64,000 nt of DNA. Origin: Thermosynechococcaceae cyanobacterium Okahandja. GTDB taxonomy: Bacteria > Cyanobacteriota > Cyanobacteriia > Thermosynechococcales > Thermosynechococcaceae. The stretch is taken from positions 1,612,001-1,676,000 of the forward strand of contig CP136945.1 in the NCBI GenBank assembly GCA_041530395.1, read 5' to 3'. The translations under genes were made by a program, and so were the position numbers. The notes below the pieces were generated by a model. It made no database searches, had not been told where the DNA came from, and saw only the letters and a program-made list of their open reading frames with translations. Below are positions 1-54,305 of this stretch, one piece after another. Every line of letters starts with the position of its first letter. Position 1 is the stretch's first letter.

Positions 1-532
1 GGATGTCGGCTATGGCATCCACCTCCTGCAGGTACATCGTCAACCGCTCCAGCCCGTAGGTAATTTCAATGGAAACGGGGCGGCAATCGAGGCCACCGCA
101 CTGCTGGAAGTAGGTAAACTGAGTTACTTCCATGCCATCGAGCCAAACTTCCCAGCCCACGCCCCACGCCCCCACGGCGGCATCTTCCCAGTTATCTTCA
201 ACAAAGCGAATATCGTGCTCTTCCGGGCGAATGCCCAGCGCCCGTAGCGAATCGAGGTAGATGTCTTGGATGGTGTCGGGGGAGGGCTTAATCAGAACTT
301 GGTACTGGTAGTAGTACTGATAGCGGTTAGGATTTTGGCCATAGCGACCATCGCCCGGGCGCCGACAGGGTTCAACGTACGCCACAGACCACGGCTCTGG
401 CCCCAGCGCCCGCAAAAAAGTATGGGGGCTTTTGGTACCCGCCCCCTTTTCCACATCGTAGGGCTGGACAATCAGGCAGCCCTGCTCTGCCCAGAATTGG
501 TGCAGGGTGGCAATAACATCCTGAAAGTACAT
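1..532 (-). CDS. glyQ: Glycyl-tRNA synthetase alpha subunit (3' part outside window)
   Basis: Cytoplasmic enzyme that charges tRNA-Gly with glycine as part of the alpha2/beta2 bacterial GlyRS. About 177 residues are visible of a family length near 290-300, so the C-terminus is cut by the window edge. The protein starts [14 protein letters not shown] and contains the characteristic stretches [27 protein letters not shown] and the [16 protein letters not shown] region, which belong to the catalytic domain of the alpha chain. The ATG at 532-530 matches the usual start of the family. It lies 4 nt downstream of the cysH stop, so the two are probably co-transcribed although functionally unrelated. 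Confidence 0.97.
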
Positions 533-3346: not shown

Positions 3347-3628
3347 CTAGGAGCTTGCCGACTGCACCAACTGGGCAAAAAAGCCGCCGCGACTGCTGAC
3401 GGTGGCAGGCGCATCCTTGTCGGCTATTTGCACCGCCACAATATCCGTGGTTAAGACGGTGAGTTTCTTGCCCACTTGGCGATCGCAGGTGAGTTCTACA
3501 ACCGTCGGGGTACCGCTGGCCATCGCCTGGCAAATGGTTTGATAGACCGCTTCGGCGGCGGCTGCCTCTTTGCGCTCAACGCTCACGGGCATCGGCACAT
3601 GACGCAGAATTAAGTCAATGGTGTACAT
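3347..3628 (-). CDS. UPF0367 family protein
   Basis: Small conserved cyanobacterial protein of unknown function, 93 residues. The start MYTIDLILRHVPMPVSVERK and the segment ELTCDRQVGKKLTVLTTDIVAV match my memory of the UPF0367 family, which is found in nearly all cyanobacteria and some plastids. No signal peptide, membrane segment or cysteine-based metal site is present apart from isolated cysteines. It stands alone between the HAD phosphatase gene and the DUF2808 gene on the same strand. Confidence 0.82.
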   Translation of the reverse strand: MYTIDLILRHVPMPVSVERKEAAAAEAVYQTICQAMASGTPTVVELTCDRQVGKKLTVLTTDIVAVQIADKDAPATVSSRGGFFAQLVQSASS

Positions 3629-3691
3629 GGCAATGAACGTGTATTTAGAACTAATGCTTAAGTTTTACTTGAGAATGCCGCGGCTGTTAAA

Positions 3692-4483
3692 TTATCGCCT
3701 AAACGAGACCGGTGCTGCCGTCCACTGGCGATGGAGCGATCGCAGCAGGGGAACATCCACGTAGGTGGTCCAGCCCACCTCCCCCTGTAGTACCTGAAAG
3801 GGATAGTCGGGTTCCCCTAGGCAGTCGAGGACAAGGGCAGCGGCGCGAAAATCGTGATCCTTGGTGTAGTCGGTAATGGTAATAATGGTGGCCAATTGGC
3901 TTGCTGTGGCCGCTTGAATGCCATTGCCCGAATCCTCAAAGGCCAGACACTCTTGGGGCGAGAGGCGCATGTGCTCAAGGGTATAAAAATAAATATCCGG
4001 TGCCGGTTTTTTAGCGGGCACCATATCCCCCGCCGCAATCAGTTCAAACCACTCTACCCCATCGGGAGCAAGGGCATTTTGCAGCAGGGCGGTGACGTTG
4101 GCCGGGGTGGTGGTAGTGGCGATCGCCAAGCGCAGCCCCGCCCTCTGTGCTTCCGTTAACAGGCGTTTTACCCCCGGCCGCAGGGGAATGGCACCTTGGG
4201 CAAGGAGTTCGGTGTAATAGCGGGTCTTAGCCTTGTGGAGGTCGGCAATCAGCGCCTCGAGGTTTTGGGGGCGGCGCCAATCGGGACGAAAGCGATCGAG
4301 GTAGTAGTGCATTCGCTCCTTGCCGCCAGCGACCGCCAGCAGTTGACCGTAGAGGGGCACATCCCACTCCCAGTCAAGCCCTGCCGCCGCAAAGGCTTGG
4401 TTAAAAGCAAGGCGGTGACCATCCCGCTCGGTATCCGCTAGAGTACCATCCACGTCAAAAATTAAGGCTTTCAGGTCGGCCAT
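3692..4483 (-). CDS. cbbY: HAD-superfamily phosphatase, CbbY-like
   Basis: Soluble sugar-phosphate phosphatase of the HAD superfamily. In CbbY relatives the substrate is xylulose-1,5-bisphosphate, an inhibitor of Rubisco. Motif I is FDVDGTLADTE near the N-terminus, with both aspartates, motif II is the Thr in IATTTTPANV, motif III is the Lys in VPAKKPAPDIY and motif IV is FEDSGNGIQAA. The helical cap lies between residues about 20 and 90 and includes AVAGGKERMHYYLDRF, which is typical of CbbY. At 263 residues it has the expected length. The gene ends 64 nt from the UPF0367 start and begins 10 nt after the stop of the upstream membrane-protein gene, so these may form one unit. Confidence 0.85.
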   Translation of the reverse strand: MADLKALIFDVDGTLADTERDGHRLAFNQAFAAAGLDWEWDVPLYGQLLAVAGGKERMHYYLDRFRPDWRRPQNLEALIADLHKAKTRYYTELLAQGAIPLRPGVKRLLTEAQRAGLRLAIATTTTPANVTALLQNALAPDGVEWFELIAAGDMVPAKKPAPDIYFYTLEHMRLSPQECLAFEDSGNGIQAATASQLATIITITDYTKDHDFRAAALVLDCLGEPDYPFQVLQGEVGWTTYVDVPLLRSLHRQWTAAPVSFRR

Positions 4484-4492
4484 AGTCCCCTA

Positions 4493-5188
4493 CTAGAGAA
4501 ACGACTGCAACTTAATCAGCCGCGCCCGCACCGCTTGGAAGTTCCCCACAGGTTCGCGGAAGTGCCATGTTTCCTCAGAGCCTAAGCCATGAACCTGCAC
4601 CGACACTTGCCCCACCCGTTGTCCACTTTTATCAAATAGCTCAAAATCTGCTTGGACAAGGCGAAACCGATCCTCGCTGTAGTTTTTGAAGACCCCCACC
4701 AAAAAGGGCGCTCCTCCCTCGATATGCCACTTGTAGTCCACTAAGCTAACGGCTTGGCCCGAGGCCATCGAACCAATTAACGGCTGCATACGCTGCTGCT
4801 GCTGCCATTGTCCCATGTGATAGCTAAAAATCACCAGTAAGCTGACGGTTCCCGCCGCGATCGCCACTATCCACGGCGCAGAAGAGGCATAAACAGGGGC
4901 AGCCGTTGCCGTTGCGGGTCGCAGATCAATGACCTCCTCCCAGTCTGACTTTGGCGACCCTTGAATTCGGCCAATAATTTTAATCCGGTCAATGCCCTCA
5001 AGGTGGAACTGCCCCAACCGAGATTTGAGCAAATCCACCAAGGCCGCATAGTGGGCGATCGTCCCGGGGGGCTTGTTCAAGATAATATTCAGTTGGTTGC
5101 GAAACTGGTTGACCTGAACGGTAACCGCATGCTCCGACAATGCATCTTGCAGTGTTTCACGAATGTGCTCAACTTGGAGTAGTCCCAT
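4493..5188 (-). CDS. Single-pass membrane protein with an N-terminal cytosolic domain and a C-terminal beta domain
   Basis: I do not recognise a named family. Residues 1-85 form a mixed alpha/beta domain (HIRETLQDALSEHAVTVQVNQFRNQ and LEGIDRIKIIGR), of a type that recurs in cyanobacterial membrane proteins. An alanine-rich linker and one transmembrane helix (PWIVAIAAGTVSLLVIFSYHM) follow. The C-terminal part (VDYKWHIEGGAPFLVGVFKNYS, VQADFELFDKSGQRVGQ) resembles FxLYD-type immunoglobulin-like domains that sit outside the membrane. The open frame extends to a GTG at 5248, but the ATG at 5188 (MGLLQVEHIRETL) is better placed relative to the conserved domain. Confidence 0.7.
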   Translation of the reverse strand: MGLLQVEHIRETLQDALSEHAVTVQVNQFRNQLNIILNKPPGTIAHYAALVDLLKSRLGQFHLEGIDRIKIIGRIQGSPKSDWEEVIDLRPATATAAPVYASSAPWIVAIAAGTVSLLVIFSYHMGQWQQQQRMQPLIGSMASGQAVSLVDYKWHIEGGAPFLVGVFKNYSEDRFRLVQADFELFDKSGQRVGQVSVQVHGLGSEETWHFREPVGNFQAVRARLIKLQSFL

Positions 5189-5426
5189 GCCCACAACCCC
5201 TACTGTTTGCCCGTGGATGCCTGCTGAGGTATATGTGCCAGTGTACACAAACCTAGCCCAAGGCTGAATTCGTAAATTTACGGTAATTTATGATTGCCTC
5301 GATGCTAACGACTGAGCCGTGATCTCCCGTCATTGCCCCCCGCTGGTGGTTTGGCGGCCTGTATAAGTTCCTATAATAGGTTTATCCGCTAGAACTCTCC
5401 CTTTGCAACAACGGTTATTTTGGGTT

Positions 5427-8400
5427 ATGCCTGCCGCTCCTGTGCCAACCAATGAAAACGAACGGCAACATGCCCTTGAGAACTACCATATTCTTGACAC
5501 GCCGCCTGAGCCGGTCTTTGATGACATCGTGAATCTGGTGGCCACCATTTGCGAAACGCCCATTGCCCTGATTAGCCTCGTTGATCGCAACCGCCAATGG
5601 TTTAAGGCCAAAGTGGGGATTGATGCCTGTGAAACCCCTCGGGACGTTGCTTTCTGCGCCCATGTCATTTTGCAACCCGAACTGATGATTGTGCCCGATG
5701 CCCGGGAGGATCCGCGCTTTGCCGATAACCCATTGGTGACAGGGCCACCCCACATCCGCTTCTATGCGGGAATGCCCTTGGTAACCCCCCAAGGCTATGG
5801 TATTGGAACCCTCTGCGTCGTTGATTACGAACCCCGTGAACTGACCCAGTTACAGGCTCAGACGTTGCGCACGCTGGCGCGGCAAGTGATTAGCGAGTTG
5901 GAAGTGCGCTATCACCTCGAGGTGGCGCAAGAGCGGCTTGCCCGTATTCAAGAGTTAAGTGGGTTGCAGGCGGCGATTTTTAACAGCACTAACCATGCCA
6001 TTATTGCCACCGATACCCAAGGCATCATTAGCTTAGTGAATCGCACCGCCGAGGAGTGGCTCGGGTACAGTGCCAGCGAATTGGTGGGCAAAGCCACCCC
6101 AGAGCGCTTTCACGATCCGCAGGAAATTGAACACTACGCAGCGCTGCTGAGCCAACAGCTAGGGGAGCCGATTGCTGCTGGCTTTGAGGTGGTGGTGGCG
6201 CGGGCGCGGCGCGGCCTTAGCGATGAACGGGAATGGACCTACGTGCGTCGGGATGGGTCTCGGTTTCCGGTGCTGCTGTCAGTCACCCCCATTCGCGATC
6301 GCCACGAGGCACTGATTGGGTTTTTGGGGATTGCCATTGACATCACCGCCAAGAAACAGATTGAGGCGGAGTTGCGGCTGCGGGAGCGGGCGATTGTGGC
6401 CAGTACCAATGGCATTGTCATTACCGATTATCGCCAACCGGATAACCCGATTATTTACGTCAATCCTGCCTTTGAGCGGATGACGGGGTACCGTGCCCTT
6501 GAGGTGATTGGCAAAAACTGTCGCTTTTTGCAGGGGGGCGATCGCCATCAACCGGGGGCTGAAGCCATTCGCAATGCCATTGCCAAGGGGCAGTCCTGTC
6601 GAGTTATTTTGCGCAACTACCGCAAAAATGGCAAACCCTTTTGGAATGAACTGGCCATTTCCCCCATTTTTAACGAGGTCGGGGAAATTACCCACTACAT
6701 TGGCATTCAAAGTGATGTGACCGAGCGGCAGCGGGCGCAGCTTTTTTTACAGCAGCAGATGAAACGCACCCTGCTACTGAACCGCATTACCGAGGAAATT
6801 CGCCAGCAAATCGAGCGGGATCACATTTGTCAGACGGCGGTGCAGCAGGTGGGTCTTACCCTTAGCGTCAGCCGCTGTTTGCTGTTTGTCTATCAAGAGA
6901 GCGCCCCTTCCCCCATCGAGTTGGTGGCCGAATACTGTGCCGCGGGTATTCCTTCGGTGTCCTCGGTGGGGAGTGAGCTCAACCGTGTGGAATTCCTGAA
7001 GTCCGCGCTGCAATCGGATCAGTTACTCAGCTTTGAAGATGTGGCCAAGGATCCGCGCCTAGCCCCCATTCACGACTATTGTCAGCGCCTAGGGGTGAAG
7101 TCGGCGCTGCTGATTCGTACCTCCTACCGCAATCAGCCCAACGGCCTACTGATCTTGCACCAGTGCGATCGCCACCGCCAGTGGACGGAGGCCATTAAGA
7201 ACTTACTGAGTAGTGTGGCGGCGCAGGTGGGCATTGGCCTTGCCCAAGTGCAGTTCCTAGAGCAGGAAACCCGCCAGCGGCAGCAATTGCAGCAGCAAAT
7301 GCAGCGGACGCTCCTGCTGAATCAAATCACCGAGCAAATTCGCCAGAGTTTAGATACCGAAACCGTTTTCAATACAACCGTGAGCCAAATTGGCCAAGCC
7401 TTTGGCGTTAGCCGCTGCCTGATTCATCGCTACGACGCAGGGCCACCGCCGCAAATCCCCAATGTGGCCGAGTATTTGCAGCCGGGCTATCCCTCTATGG
7501 CTGGGGTGAACGTGCCGGTGGTGGGCAACCCCCACGCCGAAGTGGTGCTGGCCGCCGATAGCGCCATTGTCTCGAATGATGTCAGCCAAGATCCCCTCTT
7601 GGTGGAGGCAACGCTCCTGTGGCAGCAGTTTCAAATTAAATCAATGCTGGCCGTACGTACCTCCTATAAAGGGGTTCCCAACGGTATCATTGGCTTGCAC
7701 CAGTGCGATCGCCAGCGCACATGGACCAGCGAAGAAATTGAACTCCTTGAAGCCGTGGCCGCCCAAGTGGGGATTGCCATTGCCCAAGCGGATCTGCTGC
7801 GGCACGAACAGCAGCAGCGGCAATTACTGGCCAGTCAAAACCAAGAACTAGAGCAGGCGCGCCTACAGGCAGAGTTAGCCAACCGTGCCAAAAGCGACTT
7901 CCTAGCCACCATGAGTCACGAAATCCGCACTCCCATGAATGCGGTTCTGGGCTTTACCAACCTACTGCTGGATACCCCCCTCAACGAGCAGCAGCGGGAC
8001 TTTCTGCAAACTATCCACCAAGCGGGGGAAGCCCTGCTAACCATCATCAACGACATTCTGGACTTTTCCAAAATTGAGTCGGGCAAGCTTGTTCTCGAGC
8101 AGCAGCCCTTTGATGTGCGCGAGTGCATTGAGGATGTCCTCAGCCTGCTGGCCAGCAAAGCCGAGGAAAAACAACTCGAGTTGCTCTATACCTGTGCCCC
8201 CAACACCCCCGCCCAAGTGTGCGGCGATGTCACCCGGCTGCGGCAAATTCTCGTCAACCTTGTAGGCAATGCCTTGAAATTTACCCACCAAGGGGAGGTG
8301 GTGGTGCACCTGCGCAGCTACACCCAAGACAACCAGCATTTTCTCGAATTTCAGGTGAAGGATACCGGCATTGGCATTCCCAGCGATCGCCTTGATCGCC

Positions 8401-9461
8401 TCTTTAAGCCCTTTAGCCAAGTGGATGCCTCCACCACCCGCGAGTACGGCGGCACCGGTCTAGGGTTGGTCATTAGTCAGCGCCTGTGCCAACTCATGGG
8501 GGGGCAAATGTCAGTCCACAGTGAGGTGGGCAAGGGCACTACCTTTTGCTTTAGCATTCTGGCAGAGGCAGTCCAGCCCTTTGTGCCTCCTCCGACCGAA
8601 CCCTGCTTGCAGGGCTGCCGCGCGTTGGTGGTGGACGACAATGAAGCTAGCCGTGACAGTCTTTGTGCCCTCTTGCGGAACTGGGGCATGGAACCGGTGG
8701 CCTACGGCGATCCCCAGTGGGTCCTAGAAGCGCCTCCCCAATGGCAGGTGGCACTGGTGGATTTGAATATGCCCAGCATGAGTGGCCTAGAGTTGGCCAA
8801 ACAACTGCCCAAGGGAGAGCGCCCCGTCATTCTCCTGACCCCCACCCGCTGGCTAGAGACCTCCAGCTATCGCGACGACATTAGCGCCTACGTTGCCAAG
8901 CCCATCCGCCCCAGTGTTCTGCGGCAAACCCTAGTGAAGGTACTCGGCTCCGATACCCGACAGCCCACCGCCGCCAGCAAAACCACCATTGACCCCACCT
9001 TGGCAGCCCGCTTCCCCCTGCGCATCCTCTTGGCCGAAGATAATGCCGTCAACCAAAAAGTTGCCCTGCACATTCTCAAGCGGATGGGGTATCGCGCCGA
9101 CGTGGCCGCCAACGGCATCGAAGTTCTTGAAGCCCTGCAACAGCGTCCCTACGACGTGATCCTGATGGATGTGCAAATGCCGAAAATGGATGGCCTAGAA
9201 ACCACTGAAAAAATCTGTAGCCAATGGCTCCCCAGTCAGCGCCCTTGGATTATTGCCATGACCGCCAATGCCCTCGCGGGCGATCGCGAACGCTGCTTTC
9301 AGGCAGGGATGGACGACTACATCAGCAAGCCCATTAAAATTGAAGCCCTTGCCGAGGCTCTCAACCGCTGTCGTTGTCTCAGCCCCAAATCCACATATCC
9401 CCAATTTTGCGACCATTTGGGGGATGAGGCCGAAACATGGCCCCCGGCCCCCATGAGTTAG
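5427..9461 (+). CDS. LOV-domain hybrid sensor histidine kinase (GAF-PAS-LOV-GAF-GAF-HisKA-HATPase-REC-REC)
   Basis: Large soluble hybrid kinase of 1344 residues with no membrane segment. Domains in order: GAF about 20-165, PAS about 185-315, LOV-type PAS about 325-440, GAF about 450-615, GAF about 630-795, HisKA with the phospho-accepting His831 in SHEIRTPMN, HATPase about 930-1050 (NALKF, DTGIGI, GGTGLGL), a first receiver with Asp1112 and a second receiver with Asp1248. The LOV domain has the flavin-binding signature GKNCRFLQ, with Cys365 in the adduct position, and the later [13 protein letters not shown] and [10 protein letters not shown], which hold the flavin-contacting Asn and Gln residues. 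This points to blue-light sensing. The two inner GAF domains have an LHQCDR motif without a bilin cysteine. A TTG at 5403 is an alternative start. Confidence 0.92.
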
Positions 9462-10333
9462 AGATACTTCGCCAACAGCAACTGTAGCTTTTCCTTAGTG
9501 GCGGCAGGCACCTTGTCAAGGGGCGTTAAGATGGCATTCTTGAGGGCACGATGGGCTTTTGACGCGGGGGGATTTGCCGCCAGCCGTTGCACCGTCTCAC
9601 AAATAATAGCCTGGGCATTTTTAACATTGCGGTGCAGATTATTAATAATCATTTCCACCGTCACCGAGTCGTGCTCTGGGTGCCAGCAATCGTAGTCCGT
9701 CACCAAAGCGAGGGTGGCATAGGCAATTTCCGCCTCCCGTGCCAGCTTCGCCTCCGGCAGGTTGGTCATGCCGATCACCGTACCTCCCCAAGAGCGATAA
9801 AGATTCGACTCCGCCAACGTTGAAAAGGCAGGGCCTTCCATACACACATAGGTTCCCTGCGGGTGCAGCGTCACCTCCGGTAAGTTCAAATCGCGAATGA
9901 CCGCGGCGAGCACCGCCGCCAGTGCGGGACAAATGGGTTCCGCAAAGCCAATATGAGCGACAATTCCCTCACCAAAAAATGTGGACACACGATTGCGGGT
10001 ACGGTCAATAAACTGATCGGGCACCACCATATCAAGGGGCTTCACCTCCTCTTGGAGAGAGCCAACGGCTGAGGCCGAGAGCAAGTACTCCACCCCAAGG
10101 GACTTAAAGCCATAGATATTGGCGCGAAAGGGAATTTCAGTGGGCAACAGGTGGTGATCTCGACCATGGCGCGCAAGGAAGGCCACCGGCACATCCCCAA
10201 TTTGGCCACAAATATAGGCATCCGACGGATCGCCAAACGGGGTACTGAGGCGCACCTCCGCCACGTTCGTGAGTGCCTCCATCTTGTACAGGCCACTGCC
10301 GCCAATAATGCCAATTTTGGGAGAAGGGGACAT
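9458..10333 (-). CDS. mtnP: S-methyl-5'-thioadenosine phosphorylase
   Basis: Cleaves methylthioadenosine with phosphate to adenine and methylthioribose-1-phosphate, the first step of the methionine salvage pathway that handles the by-product of polyamine synthesis. The 291-residue protein has the phosphate-binding start GIIGGSGLY, the [10 protein letters not shown] motif, [38 protein letters not shown] and the substrate-defining [16 protein letters not shown] with TDYDCWH near the C-terminus, all typical of MTA phosphorylase rather than purine nucleoside phosphorylase. It converges with the LOV kinase gene and their stop codons overlap by 4 nt. Confidence 0.94.
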
Positions 10334-23096: not shown

Positions 23097-23603
23097 ATGG
23101 CCAGTGTTCCCTTGGGAGCGAGTGAATACTTTCATGTGGAGCTACTCCAAGGGGTGAATGTGGCGATTCCCTTGGATCATACTGCCGAGGTCTTAAGTCT
23201 GCGGGGGCAGGACATTTGCCTGATTCCGGGAGTATCCCCCGCACTGCTGGGCATTAGTAACCAGCGGGGTCGCCTCTTGTGGATGTTAGATTTATTACAT
23301 ATCTTGGGATTAGTGCTGCCCCCTCACGGCAGGACAAACGAACGCTTGACGGCCTTGGTGGTGAAAGAGGTTACACCGGAGCAGCCGCGCCAATTCGCCT
23401 GTATTGTCCATCAGTTGCGCGGCATTATTAGCGTTTTGCCAGAGCAGGTGCAGCCGGTTCCTACTCGTTTACAGCGGGAGGTGCGCCAATACTTAAGTGG
23501 ATTTATGCAACTGGAGCGGCAACCCATCTTACTCCTAAACATTGATGCAATTTTTCAGGCCGTGGCTCGTTCACCCGTATCCTCCTCTGCCCTAAGCCTA
23601 TGA
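23097..23603 (+). CDS. CheW-like coupling protein, operon 1
   Basis: Scaffold that links the chemoreceptor to CheA. The 168-residue protein has the CheW SH3-like beta barrel: [22 protein letters not shown], the conserved [23 protein letters not shown] with its Asn-Gln-Arg-Gly turn, and a second barrel half with [17 protein letters not shown]. It overlaps the following receptor gene by 4 nt (ATGA), which indicates translational coupling. Confidence 0.9.
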
Positions 23604-25165
23604 CCTCCCTTGCCAACAATTCCCCCACCACCCGTCCCTTGAGCGATCGCTACTTCAACGCCATCCTGACGCAGGATATTCCGACACTGCGGCAGCTCCT
23701 CAGCGAAGACCCGACGGATTACCTAGTGCAGCTAACCTTAGCCACTGCCCTAGAGCAGCAGGGAGACATGGCCGCTGCCACGGATCTTTACACGGCGATC
23801 GCCCAAGGGGACCAAGGGATTTTTGGCCAAAGTGCGCGCAATGCCCTTGCCCTATTGCAGGAGGCACCGCCCCCTGTCCCCCCTCCCTTGCCCCCGCGAC
23901 CGGCGGCTCCCATCAGTCCCACGGTGCTGAATTTTGGTCGCGGCCAAACGAAACAATTGCGGCAGGGGTTACATGAACTGGCCACCGCCTTGGTTGAGCT
24001 CACCCAACAGCAGTGGCATACCCCCTTGCCGCCGGTGAGCGATCCCCAGTTGGTGGCGATCGCCGAGGGCATTGCCACCCTAGTGAAGCAATTGCAGCAG
24101 CAACAGCAGCAAATTAGCGATCTGGAAGCCCAGCGCCACGCCGAGAGCCAGCGCCAGCGGGACGAGCGCATGAAAATGCAGGAAGCGGTCATTAACCTGC
24201 TGTTGGATATTGAAGGGGCGCAGCGGGGTGATTTAACCGTCCGTGCCAAAGTTGATGAAGGGGAAATGGGGTCGATTGCCGACGCCTTTAACGCCACCGT
24301 GCGCAGTCTGCGCCAAATTGTTGTCCAAGTGCAGGCTGCCGCCAACCAAGTACAGGTCGCTGCCCAAACCAGTCAGGAGGCCATTGCCGGTCTTGTGGAG
24401 GGAGCCACCCACCAAGCAGAAGATATTCAGCGCACAGTGCAGGCGGTAGAAGTCATGGCCGCGTCGGTGCAGGATGTGGCGGTAGCGGCTCAGGAGGCTG
24501 CCAAGATTGCGGCTGAGGGGTTAGCAGCGGCTGAGCTAGGGGATGCCACGATGGATACCACCGTGGAGAGCATGGAAAATATTCGTCTTAGCGTTGCCGA
24601 TACGGCCAAAAAAATGAAACGCTTGGCGGAGTCCTCTCAAGAAATTTCCAAAATTATTAACATCATCTCGGGCATTTCCGAAAAAACCAACCTCTTGGCC
24701 TTTAACGCCTCCATTGAAGCAGCCCGCGCTGGCGAGCATGGTCAGGGCTTCCGAGTGGTGGCCGATGAAGTGCGGCGCTTGGCGGAGCGGGTCACTGACT
24801 CCACCCGCGATATTGAGCAGCTAATTACAGGTATTCAGCAGGAAACCGCCGAAGTGCTCCAAGAGATGGAGGGCAGCACCGCCCAGGTGGTCAAGGGCAC
24901 CCAGTTGGTGAGCCAAACCAAAACCACCCTTCAGGGGCTAGCACGCCTGAACCAGCAAATTGATGCCCGCCTGCAAGCCATCTCAGAGCGCACCGTCTCC
25001 CAGACCGCCACTGCTGCGGAAGTGACCCAGATTATGCAGGCCGTGGCGCAGATGGCTCAGACAACTGCTTCAGCCTCTGCGGCGGTGGTTGCTGCCATGG
25101 AAAGCTTAGGGACAGTGGCCGCCGAACTCCAGTCATCCGTATCGCGGTTCCGTGTTGAAACTTAA
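23600..25165 (+). CDS. Cytosolic methyl-accepting chemoreceptor, operon 1
   Basis: Chemoreceptor of 521 residues without any transmembrane segment. Residues 1-90 resemble tetratricopeptide helices ([28 protein letters not shown]), followed by a proline-rich linker, a glutamine-rich coiled coil (about 155-190), a HAMP-like module ([23 protein letters not shown]) and the signalling hairpin with its tip [21 protein letters not shown]. Unlike the phototaxis receptor PixJ it has no GAF domain, so it is not itself a bilin photoreceptor. It ends in SRFRVET, a tail shared with the receptor of operon 2. Stimulus unknown. Confidence 0.9.
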
Positions 25166-25183
25166 GGCCTGTGAAGGTGGGCT

Positions 25184-27805
25184 ATGACCCTAAATGCTGC
25201 CGAATTGGATGCCATTACCCAAGAAGCCCGCAACTGCTTTCTTTACGAGGATGCGCCGGAATACCTCCTGTGCCTTGAGCAGTGGGCAGAGCAGGTGGTT
25301 GCGAATCCGCAGCGCCCCTACACCCCTGCAGACTATAACGTCTTGATGCGGGCGGCGCACTCCCTCAAAGGGGGCGCAGGCATTGCCCAATTGGCGGAGC
25401 TACAGGAGCTAACCCACTGCCTAGAGGACGTGCTAGAAGCCCTCAAGGACAATCAGATTAGCGATCGCGCCCGTGCCCACCAATTGCTCGTGCAGGGTAT
25501 TGAGCAAACCCATGAGCTACTAGAAGCAGCCAAACAGCAACGATCCGTCCCCCTAACGCCGCAACGGCAAAGCCTATTGGCAGAACTCGGGACGTTGTTG
25601 GGTTCCGTTCCTGCCGCTAGCCCCACACCGCCCCCTAGTAACTTACACACAGCCCTCAGCCGCGACCTTGAAGCTTGCTTGCAGGGGTTAGAGGCCAGCA
25701 CCACAGATGCCGAGCGCGAGAGCGCCTTAATAGCCCTTTTGGCCTTGGCGGAAACCTTGGGCGATCGCCATCAGGTGTCGTGGCTGAAGCAACTGGCCAC
25801 AGAATTACCCCCCTTAGTGGCCGAGATGCCTCTAGCAGAACTAGTGCCCGCAGTTGTGGCTGAATTCCGCCAACTGCAGCAGGCCGAGCTGGCCAAAGTG
25901 GCACCGGCTGAGCCACCCCCCCCTGCCCCCCCCTCAGCGCCAGCGGCGGAAGAGGTTTACTTGCGCATTCCCGTGAGTAAGTTGGATCGCTTGGGCAACA
26001 CCGTCAGTGAACTGCTCATTGGTCAGGAGCGACTCACCCTTTACCAGCAGCAATTTTCCCGCACCAACCGCGAATTAAAGTACCGCATTGAACAGTTCCG
26101 TCCTATTCGCGATCAGGTGCAAACCCTCTACGATCGCCTTGCTACCCCTCTTGCGGGGCGGGGGATGGCCTTTAACAGTCCAACCACCGACGACTTCGAT
26201 GCCCTCCAGTTTGACCGCTACACCGACCTACACACCACCCTACAAGAGTTTCAGGAACTGTTGGCGCGCATTCAGGAAACGGGGGCAGATATCGACCTAC
26301 TCAACCGCGATCTCCAAGAGGCGCTAGATTTGGGTCGCCAACACCTCAACAGTCTCTACAGTGAACTCACCGACTCGCGCCTTGTCCCCTTTCGCCAGTT
26401 AGCGGAAAAATTTATTACCGCGGTGCAAACCCTCGGCGATCGCCACCAAAAGCCGGTGCAACTGGTGATTGAAGGGGGTGACACCCTCGTGGATCAGGTC
26501 ATCCTGCAGCAACTTAAAGCCCCCTTAACCCACTTGGTCCGCAATGCCTTTGACCATGGCCTTGAACCCGCCAAAGAGCGGCAGGCCAAGGGTAAACCCA
26601 GCACTGGCACCATCTACCTACGGGCTGCGTTGCGGGGCAATGCGGTCGAAATTCAGGTGGCCGACGACGGTCGCGGGGTTGATTTGCAGCGAGTACGGCA
26701 AAAAGCGGTGGAGCAGAACCTCTGCCCCCTTGAAAAAATGCCGGAACTGACTCGGGAGCAAGTTTTAGAATTTCTCTTTTTACCGGGCTTTTCCACCGCC
26801 AAACAGGTGAGCGATCTCTCGGGACGCGGCGTGGGTCTAGATGTTGTCCGCGAGCAAGTAGAACGCTGCCGCGGTCGGATTAAGCTGACCACCGAACCCC
26901 AGCGGGGCACTACCTTTACCCTCAGCCTGCCCTTAACCCTGAGCATTTTGCCCATGGTGCTGTGCCAAGTCGGCGACCTCACCTTGGCGATCCCCGATTT
27001 GAGTATTCGGGAAGTGATTGCCCTGAAAGAGTACACCGATATTCGTCAGCCCAGTGCCACCATTACTTGGCAAGACCAGACGATTCCCCTCTATCCCCTG
27101 CAGCATCTCTTACCCTACCAGCGGCCGATTGCCGCACCGACCCAACCCCTAGGGGTGGGAGTGGTGGTGGATGTGGCGGGTCAACCCATGGCCTTGGCGG
27201 TCAACTACCTGATTGCCGAGCGGGAACTGGTGGTGAAACCCTTTGATCACACTGTGCCGGTGCCCCCCTACATGATGGGCTGTACCGTTTTAGGGAGTGG
27301 CGAAGTGGTGCCCGTCCTTGCCCCCGATAACCTAACCCTCCCACTGACCCCAACGTCTGAAGCCCCTGCTGTGCCGAGCCAACCCACAACGCGGCCCACC
27401 AACCCGCAAGTGATGATTGTGGATGACTCCATTGCTGTGCGGCGGTTGCTGGAGCGGGTTCTGCGCCAAGCCGGCTATGACGTGGTTCAGTGCCGCGATG
27501 GGAAAGAAGCCCTCGATACCCTACTGGGGCAGGGCCAACAGGTCGCGTTGGTCATTACCGATGTGGAAATGCCCCGCCTAGATGGCTATGGCTTGCTAGA
27601 GGCAATTCGCACGGCGGCCTCTTTGCAGCACCTACCAGTCACCATGCTCACCTCCCGTGGGGGCGATCGCCATCGCCAAAAAGCCTTTCAGTTAGGGGCT
27701 AATGGTTATATTATCAAACCTTTCCAACCCCAAGCGATGCTGGCAACCGTAGCTCAACTCCTCAACCAAACCGCATCCCCGCGACCAAATTCTGGTAAAG
27801 CTTAA
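25184..27805 (+). CDS. cheA: CheA-type hybrid histidine kinase, operon 1
   Basis: Kinase of the pathway, 873 residues. Domains: Hpt with phospho-accepting His59 in RAAHSLKGGAG, a second helical segment about 150-240, dimerisation region about 270-420, CheA ATPase about 420-580 (HLVRNAFDHGLEP, VADDGRGVD, SGRGVGLDVV), CheW-like regulatory domain about 590-720, and a C-terminal receiver with the Asp in LVITDVEMPRLDG. No CheY-binding P2 domain is seen. A CheA fused to a receiver is typical of the Pix/Pil group. The ATG is 18 nt after the receptor stop and has GAAGGTGG upstream. No cheR or cheB gene is linked. Confidence 0.94.
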   Translation: MTLNAAELDAITQEARNCFLYEDAPEYLLCLEQWAEQVVANPQRPYTPADYNVLMRAAHSLKGGAGIAQLAELQELTHCLEDVLEALKDNQISDRARAHQLLVQGIEQTHELLEAAKQQRSVPLTPQRQSLLAELGTLLGSVPAASPTPPPSNLHTALSRDLEACLQGLEASTTDAERESALIALLALAETLGDRHQVSWLKQLATELPPLVAEMPLAELVPAVVAEFRQLQQAELAKVAPAEPPPPAPPSAPAAEEVYLRIPVSKLDRLGNTVSELLIGQERLTLYQQQFSRTNRELKYRIEQFRPIRDQVQTLYDRLATPLAGRGMAFNSPTTDDFDALQFDRYTDLHTTLQEFQELLARIQETGADIDLLNRDLQEALDLGRQHLNSLYSELTDSRLVPFRQLAEKFITAVQTLGDRHQKPVQLVIEGGDTLVDQVILQQLKAPLTHLVRNAFDHGLEPAKERQAKGKPSTGTIYLRAALRGNAVEIQVADDGRGVDLQRVRQKAVEQNLCPLEKMPELTREQVLEFLFLPGFSTAKQVSDLSGRGVGLDVVREQVERCRGRIKLTTEPQRGTTFTLSLPLTLSILPMVLCQVGDLTLAIPDLSIREVIALKEYTDIRQPSATITWQDQTIPLYPLQHLLPYQRPIAAPTQPLGVGVVVDVAGQPMALAVNYLIAERELVVKPFDHTVPVPPYMMGCTVLGSGEVVPVLAPDNLTLPLTPTSEAPAVPSQPTTRPTNPQVMIVDDSIAVRRLLERVLRQAGYDVVQCRDGKEALDTLLGQGQQVALVITDVEMPRLDGYGLLEAIRTAASLQHLPVTMLTSRGGDRHRQKAFQLGANGYIIKPFQPQAMLATVAQLLNQTASPRPNSGKA

Positions 27806-47581: not shown

Positions 47582-50257
47582 CTAAGAGCCAGCAGTTGCT
47601 GTTTCTAGCTCCACCCCTTCTAGGAGATCGTTGACCGGGAAGCGATCTAGGAGGTGGCGTGCCTGCTGGGCACTTTGGCGCAGTTGGGGGCTGGTGTGGG
47701 GAGCATGGGGAATCTGGGAGAGAAAGTCGAGGGTGCGCCGCAACAAACGCACAATATCGCCCGCATCAAGGTTGGTTTGGGCACAGAGTTCGTTCCAAGG
47801 GGTTCCCAAGGCCCAGTGCTCGACCAAGCCAATTAGGTCCCATTCGTACCAGAGGGGAAAGATAATCTGCCGTCGCCGCTGAATTTGAAAGAGCCGGCGG
47901 CGGGTTGGGCTAAGGGCGGCCAAGCACTCCTCGACTTCGCTGGCAATGGGATAGTTGCACCAACTGTCAGACCGCGGTGTTTCGGTGACAAGGGCGGCAA
48001 CCGCTGCTGCCAACAGGTGGGGGGGCAGGTTATCTAGCTCGCCGGAGGCAAGGGCAAGGGCTAACCAGAGTTCGTTTTCGCCCCGTAAGGCCGCGGCCAT
48101 TTCCCCAAGGGGGGTGGGGGTCAAGTCGTTGAGGCCGCCAAAGTCTTGCAGGGCACCCACCAGTGACAGGAACTGATCCCAGTGGCGCTGGGCTTGCAGG
48201 GTCAGTTTTTGCCGGCGATCGCCCAATTCTGTCAGCAGCCGCTCTTCCCGACGCACGAGCCGCAAAAGATTATTGACATTTTGGGGGAAGCTGGCCTGCA
48301 GTTGACTCAGTTTAGCTTGCAGGTCGGCAATTTTGGCCTGTTGGGCCGCCACTTGCGGAGCAGGTAGCACCGGCGGCAGGTCTGGGATTTGCTCTAGCCA
48401 CTGTTGGGGCTGGGGAACGGGACAGGTTGCGCCAAGGCGCAGTTTGAACCCCTCGGGTAAGGGCGGTAGCGCTGAGACCGCGGGGCGATCCGGATAGACC
48501 CCCAGAATGTGCTCAGCGGCAACCACGTGCAGGCGGCCATCGCTGCCTAGGCAAACCCAGTGGGGGAACTGACCGGCTCCCTGCACTTGATGGCACAGTA
48601 CGGCGGCTAGGGGAGGCTGCTCGGCCACGGTGGGTTTTAGGTGGATCCAAGTGCCCAGCGGCGCGGCCATGATCAGGGGCAGGAGTTCGTGGGTGCGTTC
48701 CTGGGCCGCCTGCTGCTGCAAAATTTTTAGGAGGCGTTGGTCTTGCTGTAGCCGTTCCCGCAGTTTTTGATAGGTGGCCAGTTGGCGGCGGTCTATGGCG
48801 GCAAGCCGTTGCTGGACGCTGTTAAGCTCTGTTTCTAGGGCAGCGATCGCTTGGCGTTGGGGGGTCAGGTGCAGGGTGGCAAGGTACTGGCCAAAACTGC
48901 GCTCCACCAGTTCCCGTGCCTCGGTAAGGGTGTGGCGCTGGAGCAGGTTCAAGACCATGCCATAGCTGGGGGTAAACTGGCTAATCAGGGGATCGGGGGC
49001 AGCGGTCGCCAAAAAGGCCGCTTCGTTGGCCCCTTCAAAGGGGGTTTGTAGCGTCACGACATGGCCAATGGTATCCATCCCCCGTCGTCCGGCACGGCCA
49101 GCCATCTGTAAAAATTCAGAGGCCGTTAGCAGGCGGTGGCCGCTATCGGTGCGCTTCGAAAGGGTGGAAATAACGGTGGTCCGGGCGGGCATATTGATCC
49201 CCGCCGCCAAGGTTTCCGTTGCAAACACCAGTTTAATCAGCCCCTCCTGAAAGAGAGTTTCGACAAAGGTTTTGACGACGGGCAGTACCCCCGCATGGTG
49301 GGCGGCAATTCCCTGATACAGGGGGGCAATCATTTCGGGCGCAACAATCTCTTGGTGCTGGGCTAAAAAATTATCGACCCGGGCGGCGAGGGTAGCCTTC
49401 TCGGCCTCTGTGAGCAGACGCAGTCCCTGAGCCTCCTGTACGGCTTGATCGCAGCCGCGGCGACTAAAAATAAAGTAAATGGCGGGCAGCATATCCCGCT
49501 GTTGCAGTTGACCCACCACGTAGCGAATGCTGAGAAACTCCCGCTTTCCCCCCCGCCGCCGCATCTCGCCGGTGCCGTGCAGCTTGGGGTTGAGGCGTTT
49601 GCGCTGGCCATCGAGGAGCGGGACTAACCCTTTGCCACTGCAAAAGTAAAAGTGTAGGGGAATGGGTCGCCAGTCGGAATAGATGAGTTCGGCATCCCCA
49701 TGGACGGCTTTAATCCAGTCGGTGAGTTGTTCGCCGTTGGCAATGGTGGCCGAAAGCGCCACTAACTGAATTTCTGGCGGGCAGTAGATGATCGATTCCT
49801 CCCACACGGTGCCCCGCTGGCGATCGTTCATGTAATGGCACTCGTCAAGCACCACGACCTCAACCCCCGCAAGGGAGGTGCCCACTTCACCAATGGAGGT
49901 GCCGTAGAGCATGTTGCGGAAAATTTCCGTGGTCATCACTAAAATAGGCGCATCCCGATTAATGGAGACATCGCCGGTGAGTAGCCCCACCTGCTCCGGG
50001 CCAAACTGCTGCTGAAAGTCCCGCAGCTTTTGGTTAGATAGCGCCTTGAGGGGAGTGGTGTAAAACACCCGCTGCTGGCGGCTGAGGGCGCGATGAATAG
50101 CGTACTCGCCAATCAGGGTTTTCCCCGAGCCAGTGGGGGCGCACACCACCACCGATCGCCCCGCCTCTAGGGCAGTGATGGCCGCCTCCTGAAAGGCATC
50201 CAAGGAAAACGGCAGTTGAGCCAGAAAGTCTGCTAGGGCTGGCGATCGCTCGCTCAT
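47582..50257 (-). CDS. Ski2/Mtr4-like DEAD/H-box helicase
   Basis: Superfamily 2 RNA helicase of 891 residues, related to Ski2 and to the chloroplast helicase ISE2. Motifs: Walker A APTGSGKT, Ia [15 protein letters not shown]-type box [11 protein letters not shown] ([10 protein letters not shown]), and helicase C-domain motifs [19 protein letters not shown] and [11 protein letters not shown] long insertion with coiled-coil segments (about 460-640) precedes the C-terminal DSHCT-type domain. It probably acts in RNA turnover or processing. Its ATG overlaps the stop of the preceding CheA gene by 4 nt, which implies translational coupling. Confidence 0.9.
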
Positions 50258-53200
50258 GGGGTTGGGGTAGGCTCCTGCACAAGAACTTCACCCTGTAGTA
50301 ACCGTGCCGCTGCATCCAGTAACTGCTCTTCGAGGTAGGGCTTGGTGAAATAGCCCTTGGCTCCCAGTTGTGCCGCCATCTTGCGGTGGCGATCGGCCCC
50401 ACGGGAGGTGAGCATGGCAATGGGCAGTTGGCTCAGCTTCGGATCCTTTTGAATGCGGGAGAGTAACTCGAGACCGTCCATACGCGGCATCTCAATGTCA
50501 CAGAAGACCAGATCGCAGGGTAGCCCCGAGCGCAGTTTCTCCCATGCATCCTGACCGTCACGCGCTTGCTCCACCCGATAGCCAGCACGGGTAAAGGTCA
50601 TCGAGAGCAGTTCCCGTACGGTAATCGAGTCGTCAATAATCAGCACCAACGGTTCTGTTGCCACTTCAGCAGGCTCAGCAACCCCAATCGTGGGATCGTG
50701 GCCAAAGGAACTCCGCCACTCCCGATCCATGCGATCTAGGGAGAGGTTTACAATTTCAAGCACGTCGGCGATCGCCATGGCGCGGCCATCCCCCTGAACC
50801 GTGACCCCAGCAATGCCCACCGGTTTGGGTACAGGCCCAGTCAACTGCTTAATCACAATTTCCTGCTCACCAATCACCTGATCGACTTGCACCGCCACCA
50901 GATCATCGCCACTGCGCAGTACCACCACCGAGACCATGCCATCGTCCTGGCTGCTGCCGCCATAGACATTACTGCGGCTAATGTTGCGACTGTAGATGAG
51001 CAGATCGCTCAATTTGCGCAGCGGCAGTTGGCGATCCTGCCAAGGTAGCAACTGCTTGCCATCCTCTAGGGTATGAATCCGCTCTTGGGGCAAATCCAGC
51101 ATATCCTCGACACCATCAATGGGGAAGGCAATGCGGCAGTGATTATCAATGCAGCAGAGAGCCTTCGTAATGCTGAGGGTCAGGGGCAAGCGAATAGTAA
51201 ACGTGGTTCCTTTGCCCACCGTCGAATCAATGTTAATGGTGCCGCGAATATCCTCAAGGTTTTTGCGCACCACATCCATGCCGACACCCCGTCCCGCGAG
51301 GGCATCCGCCTGATCTTTCGTGCTAAAACCGGATTGGAATAGGAAGGCGTACACCTCTTGCCGCGAGAGATTCGGGGCATCCGCAGGATTGAGCAACCCC
51401 TTTTCAATGGCTTTCTGCTTCACCCGCTCGGGGTCAATACCGCCGCCATCGTCACTGACGGCAATAATGGCTTGGCTACCTTGGTAAAAGGCCCGGACAC
51501 GAATCAGACCTTTTTCGGGTTTCCCCAATTGCTGGCGTACCTCTGCCGGCTCAATGCCGTGATAGACGGCGTTATTGATGAGGTGGGTCATCGGGTCAAA
51601 GAGCTTTTCGAGAATGCCCTTATCAATTAGGGTATCTTCCCCTTCTACCCGTAGATCCACCTGCTTCCCAATGGTGCTGGCCACCCGTCGCGCTGCCCCA
51701 GGCAAGCGGGAAGACATTTCGCGGAAGGGCACCATTCGTGAGCGGCTCAGCCCTTCTTGGACTTGGGTGGTCACTTGGCGAAATTGCCGCGCCACCTGCT
51801 CCACTTCATCCACTACGTACTGGATGTCGTCTGCGGCCTCCCGCACCCGTACAATCCGCTCAATCACCTCCTGCGACAGGGTGTGGAAGCCGGTGAACCG
51901 ATCCATTTCGAGGGCATCGAACTCCACCCCGGTGGCGTGAGCACGCGCCTCTTGGGTTTGATTCGCGCCGGAGCGTACCGCCGAGATGCCTAGCAGAGAA
52001 CTCTCGAGGAGCGATCGCTCGTAGAGATCCTGCATCTGTTGGCTGACATCCCCCAATTGCTGTACCTGATAGAGCAGGTTATCTAAAAATTGGCGCAGGC
52101 GCTCTTGGCTATCCTCAAGGCTGTTGCGATTAACCACCAACTCCCCAACCAAGTTACTTAAACTGTCGAGGTGGCGTACCGGCACCCGCATGGTTTGCTC
52201 CACTAGGGCGGCGGATTTGGCCGCTTCCCGCCGTCGCGGTGCACTGGTCTTGGCGGCAGCGCCAATAATGCTTTCTAGCTCCTGAAAACCACTATCGGTG
52301 CCGGGGCTGGTGGGGCTAGGCGCAGCTACGGGTGCGCTAGGCGTTCCTAACAACTGCTCTAGATCATCAAAATCAGCCGCAGATGCCGCCGCTGGCGGTG
52401 CAGGGGTCTCCTCTTCCTCTTGATTGAGCAATTGCTCCAAATCGTCAAATACAGGGGCGGCAGGGGCATCCTCCACTTGGAGAAGCTGATCGAGTTCCGC
52501 AAGGGCAGCCCCATCCGCTGCTGGCACACTCTCATCAATGAGGGCATCCAACTCCTCTAGGACAGTACTGGTGTGCTCGGCAGTGCTATCCGGCGGACTA
52601 CTGCTCTCGCTGACGGGTGCTGCTGGCTCTGCCCACAGATCCGTAACCTCTTCCCCTGCCGGTGCGACTGATTCTGCCCACAGGTCTGCAACCTCTTCCA
52701 CAGGCGGCGCGCTGACAAATTCAGCCAACGCATCTGCCGCCGTATTTTCCACCACGAGGTTATCCAAGGCATCGGTGAGTTCGGGGGCATCCCCTAAAAA
52801 AGCCGCCACATCCGAAAAGGCATCCGCAGAAAGGGATTCAGCGTCAGGCACACTCAAATCCGCAAGCGCGCCGTCAATAGGTGGCTCTGCCGCGGTGGCT
52901 GTGACCTCTGGGATAAGATCGGCGCCGGGCTGGAGGGTGGATGGACTCGCCTCAGTGAATTCCCCGAGGAACGCGGCAATATCAACCTCCTCGCTGGCGG
53001 TGTCTGGCTCCTCCCCTAGGAGTAGATCGTTAATATCCTCTTCAGTGGTGATGTCGCTTGGCTCTTCCGAGAGCAGGCTATCAATATCTGTCAGTAGCTC
53101 ATCAAGGCCAATGTCTGGTGTGCTGGCCTCTGTCGCACTGCTGCTGACCGTCAAGAAGTCGGAGATGTCTTCATCAATGAAGTCGCTGCTCTCAAGACTG

Positions 53201-54288
53201 ACCAGTTGCTCATCCAGCACTTGGTCGGTCCATTCTGCCGCTAAGTCGCCAGCAAGACTAAAGATATCGCTAAGCTCTTCCAAATCGGTTTGGCTATCTT
53301 CCCCAAACACGGTGACCCCATCCCCTTCGAGGCTAGGCTCCTCAACTACCTCTTCAAGCGCGTCGGCGGGAACGGGGGTGACGGCGTCCACCGGTGGCGC
53401 TGCCTCCACTCGGGCCGGTTCTTCAATGGGGGGAACCTCTACGGGTGCGGGTTCGCTGACAACTGGCGGGGGTGGCTGTAGCGCAAGCAGGTTCTCACTG
53501 GCGGTAATGGTATGGCCTTGGCCACTGAGCACCAGATCCCGTGCCGCCATAATTTCCTTGATCACGACCGGAGCAAGGGCGGTCAGGGGTTGGTTTTCGT
53601 TACTCACCACCTGCTGGGCGATCGCCAACAGGTCAACCCACTGGGGTAGGGCAAAGGTTTCCCCTAGTTGGCCTAGGTTGGAGCATTCTGCCATCAGTTC
53701 TTGGCGCACCGCCGCCGAATCGGGCTGCTTAAAGAGTTGTAGCATTGCCCGTAGGCGCTCCGGCACATCGGTCTGAAACACAAATGTATAGCTCGGATCA
53801 ACCGGCGGGGGCGGGGCAACCGTGGAGGGGCGAGCCACCACAGGTTCTGGTGCTGGCGTTGTGCTGCCTTGGGTTAACGCATTGAGGTGCTCCTGCAGTT
53901 GATGAAACACCGGGTCAACCTTGGCAAGGGTGGCCGCCGCAATCTCCTCCGTCAGCCCAAACGGGCCTTGCAGTTCATCGAGCAGTTCCCGCAGAGCATC
54001 AAACCCCTGCAAAAACAGATTCTCTAAGGTGCTATCGACGGTGATGGGATGCTCCCGTAGAACCTTAAAGTAGTCTTCGAGTTTGTGGGCCGTGTGCTGA
54101 ATGCTGTGCAACCCCAGCATGGCCGCTCCCCCCTTAACCGAGTGAGCCGCGCGAAACATCTCACTCATGGCTTCGGGGTCGTTGACCACCTGCTGCAAAT
54201 TCATCAAACTCTCTTCAATGGTGGTCAGGTGCTCCTGCGCCTCTTCAATGAAGTAGCCGAGAATGCGCTTTTGTTGATCGCTTTGCAT
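50254..54288 (-). CDS. cheA: CheA-type hybrid histidine kinase, operon 2
   Basis: 1344 residues. Hpt domain with His49 in FRAAHSVKGGAA, a second helical domain about 165-260, then a long acidic, Ala/Pro-rich linker (about 270-680) carrying repeats of the motif DDLEQLL. The catalytic part has a dimerisation region about 690-860, CheA ATPase about 860-1030 (HLINNAVYHGIEP, VSDDGGGID, AGRGVGMDVV), a CheW-like domain about 1030-1160 and a receiver with its Asp in LVFCDIEMPRMDG near residue 1263. PilL-type proteins of pilus pathways have this layout. The ATG is 17 nt after the receptor stop; the stop overlaps the helicase start. Confidence 0.94.
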   Translation of the reverse strand: MQSDQQKRILGYFIEEAQEHLTTIEESLMNLQQVVNDPEAMSEMFRAAHSVKGGAAMLGLHSIQHTAHKLEDYFKVLREHPITVDSTLENLFLQGFDALRELLDELQGPFGLTEEIAAATLAKVDPVFHQLQEHLNALTQGSTTPAPEPVVARPSTVAPPPPVDPSYTFVFQTDVPERLRAMLQLFKQPDSAAVRQELMAECSNLGQLGETFALPQWVDLLAIAQQVVSNENQPLTALAPVVIKEIMAARDLVLSGQGHTITASENLLALQPPPPVVSEPAPVEVPPIEEPARVEAAPPVDAVTPVPADALEEVVEEPSLEGDGVTVFGEDSQTDLEELSDIFSLAGDLAAEWTDQVLDEQLVSLESSDFIDEDISDFLTVSSSATEASTPDIGLDELLTDIDSLLSEEPSDITTEEDINDLLLGEEPDTASEEVDIAAFLGEFTEASPSTLQPGADLIPEVTATAAEPPIDGALADLSVPDAESLSADAFSDVAAFLGDAPELTDALDNLVVENTAADALAEFVSAPPVEEVADLWAESVAPAGEEVTDLWAEPAAPVSESSSPPDSTAEHTSTVLEELDALIDESVPAADGAALAELDQLLQVEDAPAAPVFDDLEQLLNQEEEETPAPPAAASAADFDDLEQLLGTPSAPVAAPSPTSPGTDSGFQELESIIGAAAKTSAPRRREAAKSAALVEQTMRVPVRHLDSLSNLVGELVVNRNSLEDSQERLRQFLDNLLYQVQQLGDVSQQMQDLYERSLLESSLLGISAVRSGANQTQEARAHATGVEFDALEMDRFTGFHTLSQEVIERIVRVREAADDIQYVVDEVEQVARQFRQVTTQVQEGLSRSRMVPFREMSSRLPGAARRVASTIGKQVDLRVEGEDTLIDKGILEKLFDPMTHLINNAVYHGIEPAEVRQQLGKPEKGLIRVRAFYQGSQAIIAVSDDGGGIDPERVKQKAIEKGLLNPADAPNLSRQEVYAFLFQSGFSTKDQADALAGRGVGMDVVRKNLEDIRGTINIDSTVGKGTTFTIRLPLTLSITKALCCIDNHCRIAFPIDGVEDMLDLPQERIHTLEDGKQLLPWQDRQLPLRKLSDLLIYSRNISRSNVYGGSSQDDGMVSVVVLRSGDDLVAVQVDQVIGEQEIVIKQLTGPVPKPVGIAGVTVQGDGRAMAIADVLEIVNLSLDRMDREWRSSFGHDPTIGVAEPAEVATEPLVLIIDDSITVRELLSMTFTRAGYRVEQARDGQDAWEKLRSGLPCDLVFCDIEMPRMDGLELLSRIQKDPKLSQLPIAMLTSRGADRHRKMAAQLGAKGYFTKPYLEEQLLDAAARLLQGEVLVQEPTPTP

Positions 54289-54305
54289 AGCCCCTCCCGG
54301 ATTGC

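What the first reader, a model, noticed from the sequence alone, without database searches (positions are those of the whole stretch)
6350..6760. LOV blue-light domain inside a nine-domain hybrid histidine kinase
The third sensor module of the kinase at 5427-9461 has GKNCRFLQ with the adduct cysteine (Cys365), the Asn-containing [13 protein letters not shown] and the Gln in [10 protein letters not shown], which are the flavin-binding residues of LOV domains. Blue-light sensing in thermophilic unicellular cyanobacteria is mostly discussed in terms of BLUF proteins and cyanobacteriochromes, so a LOV kinase with three extra GAF domains and two receivers is a good candidate photoreceptor. The partner regulator is not linked. 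The domain call is from motifs I can see; light control of the kinase is inference.
Basis: partly seen in the sequence, partly recalled or inferred. Interest (0 to 1): 0.7.

Follow-up and report, generated by a model that had tools for sequence, protein, structure and literature searches.

The report
Known cyanobacterial LOV blue-light hybrid kinase
A large signalling kinase of a heat-loving cyanobacterium carries what looks like a complete blue-light-sensing LOV domain, but the same gene in a close relative has already been named as a candidate light receptor and deleted, and the mutant still moved towards light.

Summary
The kinase at 5427-9461 (+, 1344 aa) reads GAF-PAS-LOV-GAF-GAF-HisKA-HATPase-REC-REC. 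Residues ~321-435 are a canonical LOV domain by sequence and predicted structure: Cys365 falls on the adduct cysteine, Gln428 on the flavin N5 glutamine. These, an Asn pair and two Arg are invariant in the 13 orthologues aligned. LOV is the most conserved sensor module, with the lowest dN/dS of the sensor modules in five of six species pairs and a tie in the sixth. The three GAFs lack the cysteine that five other GAFs of this genome have, so LOV is the only chromophore site I recognise.

It is not new. One LOV match is found in each of 11 genus genomes. [quoted passage not shown] vulcanus (PMC9090330); all four knockout primers match one genus genome exactly. The mutant kept positive phototaxis; the blue-light switch depends on SesA. 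Output is unknown; the likeliest route is His831 to REC2 Asp1248 to an unlinked HPt. Flavin binding and light control are untested here.

The parts
5427..9461 (+). Hybrid histidine kinase, 1344 aa, GAF-PAS-LOV-GAF-GAF-HisKA-HATPase-REC-REC; orthologue of tll1282
   Evidence: Translation, Pfam, match in 11 of 11 genus genomes, in two pieces in G002, tll1282 knockout primers map to the orthologous locus
5505..5891 (+). GAF 1 (aa 27-155), no bilin cysteine
   Evidence: GAF match in own-genome search; alignment with GAFs of the genome
5973..6344 (+). PAS domain (aa 183-306), not LOV: no adduct cysteine
   Evidence: Pfam; alignment of PAS_9 stretches
6387..6731 (+). LOV domain core (aa 321-435)
6519..6521 (+). 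Codon of Cys365, the predicted flavin C4a adduct cysteine
   Evidence: structural match, ranges of equal length, to residue 426 of phot2 LOV2 (entry 4eer is its C426A mutant)
6708..6710 (+). Codon of Gln428, the predicted flavin N5 glutamine
   Evidence: falls on Q148 of CagFbFP counting back from the range ends
6813..7250 (+). GAF 2 (aa ~463-608), no bilin cysteine; least conserved of the sensor modules
7347..7784 (+). GAF 3 (aa ~641-786), no bilin cysteine
7887..8084 (+). HisKA (aa 821-886) with phospho-acceptor His831
8223..8558 (+). HATPase_c (aa 933-1044)
8616..8951 (+). Receiver 1 (aa ~1064-1175), Asp1112; fast-evolving
9021..9365 (+). Receiver 2 (aa ~1199-1313), Asp1248; strongly conserved, likely phospho-acceptor

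Best explanation
This is the tll1282-type LOV hybrid histidine kinase of Thermosynechococcus. The LOV domain (aa 321-435) binds oxidised flavin (probably FMN) in the dark. Blue light makes a Cys365-C4a thioether, N5 becomes protonated, Gln428 flips, and the change passes along the C-terminal helix through GAF2 and GAF3 into the HisKA dimer. This alters autophosphorylation of His831; the phosphate goes to Asp1248 of receiver 2, then to a separate HPt protein (best candidate: the stand-alone 106-aa HPt elsewhere in the genome) and an unlinked response regulator. Shown here: predicted fold, flavin-pocket residues, their conservation, kinase and receiver motifs, and identity with the published deltaLOV gene. 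Inferred: flavin binding, light control, phosphate route. In T. vulcanus the gene is not needed for positive phototaxis (published).
For: phmmer of the domain against the PDB: best hit 7r5n (PF5-LOV), E 1.8e-44; the five alignments shown have no gap through the cysteine and the glutamine. AlphaFold2 model of aa 312-455, mean pLDDT 85.8 from 4 sequences; all 50 entries listed by VIA-align 2 are LOV domains or LOV-derived, best Z 20.7, rmsd 1.3 over 141 residues. In 4eer model range 16..121 matches 388..493 with 106 aligned, so model residue 54 = Cys365 lies on 426, the cysteine removed in that entry. Asn364, Cys365, Arg366, Gln369, Arg382, Asn397, Asn407, Gln428 and His831 are identical in 13 of 13 orthologues aligned (10 of the genus, one of them only its C-terminal frame; 3 more distant). 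Mean identity of the window protein to 9 intact genus orthologues: LOV 91%, GAF1 82%, GAF3 79%, PAS 75%, GAF2 69%; HisKA 96%, REC2 93%, HATPase 77%, REC1 60%. LOV dN/dS 0.008-0.050 in six pairs. Primers of the deltaLOV construct: 4 of 4 exact at the orthologous locus in G006, two of them inside the kinase about 2 kb apart, as the paper states. Stand-alone HPt in 10 of 11 genus genomes. Precedent: Anabaena CdgK, a hybrid kinase whose REC1 is dispensable and whose REC2 and HPt carry the signal; its PAS2 is reported to bind FMN (PMC9927289, passages).
Against: No flavin spectrum or light-dependent kinase assay for this protein was found: the gene name tll1282 occurs in one held paper, which reports neither in the parts I read. 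In that paper all mutants, deltaLOV included, kept positive phototaxis, and SesA is named for the blue-light switch (the deltaLOV bar of Figure 3B was not seen), so there is no physiological proof of photoreception. In CdgK, deleting the FMN-binding PAS2 left cell size normal, so such a domain need not dominate the output. Naming the stand-alone HPt as partner rests only on the absence of a fused HPt; four other HPt matches exist in the genome, two of them CheA-like proteins of this window, and the HPt was not found in G010.
Confidence: 0.75

Rival explanations
1. The LOV domain binds flavin and may form the adduct, but serves mainly as a redox or flavin-state sensor; the GAF and PAS modules set kinase activity, and light is a minor input.
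For: Two GAFs lie between LOV and HisKA; the FMN-binding PAS2 of Anabaena CdgK is dispensable for cell size; the T. vulcanus deletion kept positive phototaxis.
Against: LOV is by far the most conserved sensor module while GAF2 is the least (dN/dS); the adduct cysteine is kept in the 30 best-scoring loci, own one included, which a purely redox role would not need.
Confidence: 0.17
2. An ordinary PAS domain that looks like LOV but does not work as a photosensor (no flavin or no photochemistry).
For: Only sequence and a predicted model are available.
Against: Full set of pocket residues, match to solved LOV proteins, low dN/dS.
Confidence: 0.04
3. The protein is a dual light sensor, with one or more GAF domains binding a bilin as in cyanobacteriochromes.
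For: GAF2 and GAF3 align well with the genome's cyanobacteriochrome-like GAFs, sharing the H-Q-C stretch near the end.
Against: At the column where L165, L166, L168, L169 and L170 have Cys, GAF1, GAF2 and GAF3 have Asp, Pro and Glu.
Confidence: 0.02

Closest known systems
tll1282 / NIES2134_112750 of Thermosynechococcus (putative LOV photoreceptor; deltaLOV mutant, PMC9090330)
   Same: Orthologue: aligns over its whole length, 78-79% identity to the G006 copy, in whose locus the published primers match exactly; same downstream gene
   Different: Species-level sequence divergence only, as far as seen
CdgK (All2875) of Anabaena PCC 7120
   Same: Cyanobacterial hybrid kinase with a PAS reported to bind FMN, a GAF, HisKA-HATPase and two receivers (PMC9927289)
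   Different: CdgK has a membrane anchor, CHASE, five PAS and a fused HPt and is co-transcribed with its regulator CdgS; the present kinase has no fused HPt by Pfam and no linked regulator. Sequences were not compared.
PpSB1, PpSB2 and PF5 short LOV proteins of Pseudomonas
   Same: Among the closest solved LOV sequences and folds
   Different: Short LOV proteins without kinase; PpSB1 R61 and R66 correspond to Arg373 and Ala378 here (constant offset)
LOV domains of Chloroflexus aggregans Cagg_3753 and Meiothermus ruber Mrub_1259
   Same: LOV domains named as parts of histidine kinases in the PDB, with solved structures; that these hosts are thermophiles is recalled
   Different: Other phyla (recalled); 40-51% identity

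Membership tests
LOV photosensor domain | PAS fold with LOV-type arrangement | tested here: met
   Model pLDDT 85.8; all 50 listed VIA-align entries are LOV or LOV-derived, Z 18.1-20.7; Foldseek best E 1.5e-16
LOV photosensor domain | Adduct cysteine at the N-C-R-F-L-Q position | tested here: met
   On the predicted model Cys365 maps to 426 of 4eer (C426A) and to 53 in 6gg9; the published LOV search pattern of PMC4844311 matches once, aa 346-365
LOV photosensor domain | Flavin-ring Asn pair, phosphate Arg, N5 Gln | tested here: met
   Asn397, Asn407, Arg366, Arg382, Gln428 present and invariant in 13 of 13 orthologues; role of Gln from PMC6798134, roles of Asn and Arg recalled
LOV photosensor domain | Binds flavin, light-driven adduct, dark recovery | not testable with these tools
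   needs purified protein
Hybrid histidine kinase | HisKA with His, N and G boxes in HATPase, receiver with Asp and Lys | tested here: met
   H831, NLVGN, DTGIGI, GGTGLGL, D1112, D1248 and receiver lysines present
Hybrid histidine kinase | HPt acceptor in the same protein or free | tested here: inconclusive
   No fused HPt at E 0.001; a free 106-aa HPt is found in 10 of 11 genus genomes, own included; partnership untested
Cyanobacteriochrome (bilin GAF) | Chromophore cysteine in the GAF | tested here: not met
   absent in all three GAFs, present in 5 of 10 other GAF stretches of the genome that were aligned
tll1282 orthologue | Same locus as the deltaLOV target of PMC9090330 | tested here: met
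   4 of 4 primers exact in L131 around and in the orthologue; single LOV match per genus genome

The most novel reading that the evidence does not exclude
The kinase is the genus's only LOV photoreceptor and drives a blue-light phosphorelay (His831 - Asp1248 - free HPt - unlinked regulator) with an output other than phototaxis, under strong selection in every species of the genus examined and independent of the SesABC cyanobacteriochromes.
Probability: 0.35. Interest if true: 0.4.

Novelty: already known. Interest (0 to 1): 0.2.

Why it matters
Thermosynechococcus is a model for blue-light responses. Its one LOV protein is kept under strong selection, yet the one mutant in the papers I could read kept positive phototaxis, so its job is open and easy to test because the mutant exists. 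The LOV domain of a thermophile could also serve as a stable flavin tag, but fluorescent LOV proteins from other thermophiles are already solved (CagFbFP).

Tried and rejected
Bilin-binding GAF: rejected for lack of the cysteine. Generic PAS: rejected; the neighbouring PAS of the same kinase (L002) and six other PAS_9 stretches (L003-L008), that is 8 of the 27 matches with the LOV itself, show no adduct cysteine; that alignment also held an antisense reading of L001, an artefact of my script, which I ignored. The first motif count with a narrow pattern missed 4 of 30 loci (L111, L112, L115, L118); their alignments show the cysteine with changed neighbours (GRNCRILQ twice, GRNCRFMQ, GSNCRLFQ). 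The weaker matches beyond these 30 loci were not checked for the cysteine. Conserved upstream neighbours: the 251-aa gene and the HAD-like gene gave no match at E 1e-10 in the 19 regions searched; the downstream gene matched in the 10 genus regions and in none of the other 9. A five-term search for thermostable cyanobacterial LOV papers found none; tll1282 occurs in one held paper; Mandalari et al. 2013 is not held, so I know it only as cited. What I saw of papers: PMC9090330, passages, part 1 of section 8 and part 1 of section 16, no figures; PMC4844311, passages and section 9; PMC9927289, PMC6798134, PMC8846402 and PMC5812497, passages. That G006 is T. vestitus BP-1 is a guess from its length of 2,593,857 bases (list; BP-1 length recalled).

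Full report
Where it is. The window lies in a 2.82-Mb genome. One of its same-genus genomes, G009, has on contig C73 (49,409 bases) the LOV locus; the named record of Thermosynechococcus sp. M98_K2018_005 that holds a 78% identical kinase is also a contig of 49,409 bases, so the genus is Thermosynechococcus or what the collection groups with it.

Observation. The ORF at 5427-9461 (+) encodes 1344 aa. Pfam gives three GAF, two PAS, HisKA, HATPase_c and two receiver stretches, so the nine-domain count and the position of LOV as third sensor module are right. NCBIfam lists, among the best 25 of 164 families, matches to the YtvA blue-light family (aa 320-448) and to a blue-light-activated histidine kinase family (aa 327-442), both below their whole-protein cut-offs, as expected for a different architecture.

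LOV rather than generic PAS. phmmer against the PDB gives 7r5n first (E 1.8e-44; PF5-LOV by its title), and the five alignments shown are without gaps through the cysteine and the glutamine. An AlphaFold2 model of aa 312-455 from four sequences has mean pLDDT 85.8. VIA-align 2 lists 50 entries, all LOV or LOV-derived, Z 18.1-20.7; Foldseek agrees. Cys365 is model residue 54. In 4eer (phot2 LOV2 C426A) the ranges 16..121 and 388..493 are equally long with 106 aligned, an offset of 372, which puts Cys365 on 426; in PpSB1-LOV 6gg9 the offset is -1, which gives 53. Gln428 is model residue 117; in the CagFbFP rows one residue is unmatched, and counting back from the end puts Gln428 on Q148, the position varied in many of those entries. 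The tool gives range ends only, so these are deductions from equal lengths. The published LOV search pattern (PMC4844311, section 9) matches the protein once, ending at Cys365.

Conservation. The LOV stretch has one match in each of the 11 genus genomes, own one included, and 46 of 58 genomes in all have a match at E 1e-10, many of the weaker ones perhaps plain PAS. The 30 best-scoring loci, own one included, all keep the cysteine; weaker matches were not checked. The full kinase is found in 11 of 11 genus genomes; in G002 the frame is broken between PAS and LOV. In the 13 orthologues aligned (10 of the genus, with only the C-terminal frame of G002; G012, G019 and G035) the residues N364, C365, R366, Q369, R382, N397, N407, Q428 and H831 are invariant. 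Over the 9 intact genus orthologues LOV averages 91% identity to the window protein against 69-82% for the other sensor modules; HisKA 96%, REC2 93%, HATPase 77%, REC1 60%. In G012, G019 and G035 most of one GAF is missing from the alignment. Nei-Gojobori dN/dS of LOV is 0.008-0.050 in six pairs, lowest of the five sensor modules in five of them; in the pair own-G003 it ties with GAF1 at 0.034, where dS of GAF1 is saturated (2.06). dS is high for other modules in that pair too.

Other chromophores. The kinase's GAFs were aligned with ten other GAF stretches of the genome (12 loci fetched of 22 matches, L172 and L174 being the kinase's own GAF3 and GAF1). L165, L166, L168, L169 and L170 have Cys in one column, followed by Tyr or His in four of them and Leu in L168; GAF1, GAF2 and GAF3 have Asp, Pro and Glu there. 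That this is the bilin cysteine of cyanobacteriochromes is recalled. The genome also has one BLUF match.

Already in print. PMC9090330 made T. [quoted passage not shown] All mutants kept positive phototaxis towards green light. Under green plus blue light the text reports that the sesA mutant failed to switch to negative phototaxis; it does not mention the LOV mutant there, and I did not see the figure. I searched the four gene-specific primer parts of the deltaLOV construct in the window, the 10 genus regions, L135, L136 and L009: in L131 (G006) all four match exactly, at 9418, 6938, 4921 and 2401, and the kinase frame is 3593-7732, so the inner pair removes about 2 kb of it, as stated. By position this takes out about residues 239-902 of the present numbering, that is LOV, both later GAFs and the phospho-acceptor histidine. 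With one LOV match per genome this settles orthology. A search for tll1282 in the library gives only this paper; whether flavin binding was measured in papers not held I cannot say.

Mechanism. LOV chemistry and the glutamine flip are as reviewed in PMC6798134 (passages). For the phosphate route the nearest precedent is Anabaena CdgK, where REC1 is dispensable and the route runs HisKA - REC2 - HPt - CdgS, and PAS2 is reported to bind FMN (PMC9927289, passages). The present kinase shows a matching contrast in conservation, REC2 93% against REC1 60%, and has no HPt of its own; a stand-alone HPt of 106 aa lies at G000:C1:200331-200648 and is found in 10 of 11 genus genomes, not in G010, an assembly of about 220 contigs. 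That it is the partner is inference.

Verdict. Interest is low; what is open is the output.

Noticed in passing
L133 (G002) 4810-8909: The orthologous kinase of one genus genome is split into two frames between PAS and LOV; the LOV-to-REC part stays open (1045 aa). True break or sequencing error is unknown.
   Followed up: partly
window 23600-27805 and 50254-57533: Two chemotaxis-type clusters in the same window, each with an MCP-like protein and a CheA-like protein that ends in a receiver (my reading of the translations; HPt matches).
   Followed up: no
window 9458-10333: The downstream convergent gene (methylthioadenosine phosphorylase-like by my reading, no family search) overlaps the kinase end by four bases and lies next to the kinase in all 10 other genus genomes.
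   Followed up: partly
L125 (G003), receiver 1: In G003 the receiver 1 phospho-acceptor motif reads LLDFSLG, where the other genus orthologues have VIDLNMP, in line with a receiver under weak constraint.
   Followed up: no
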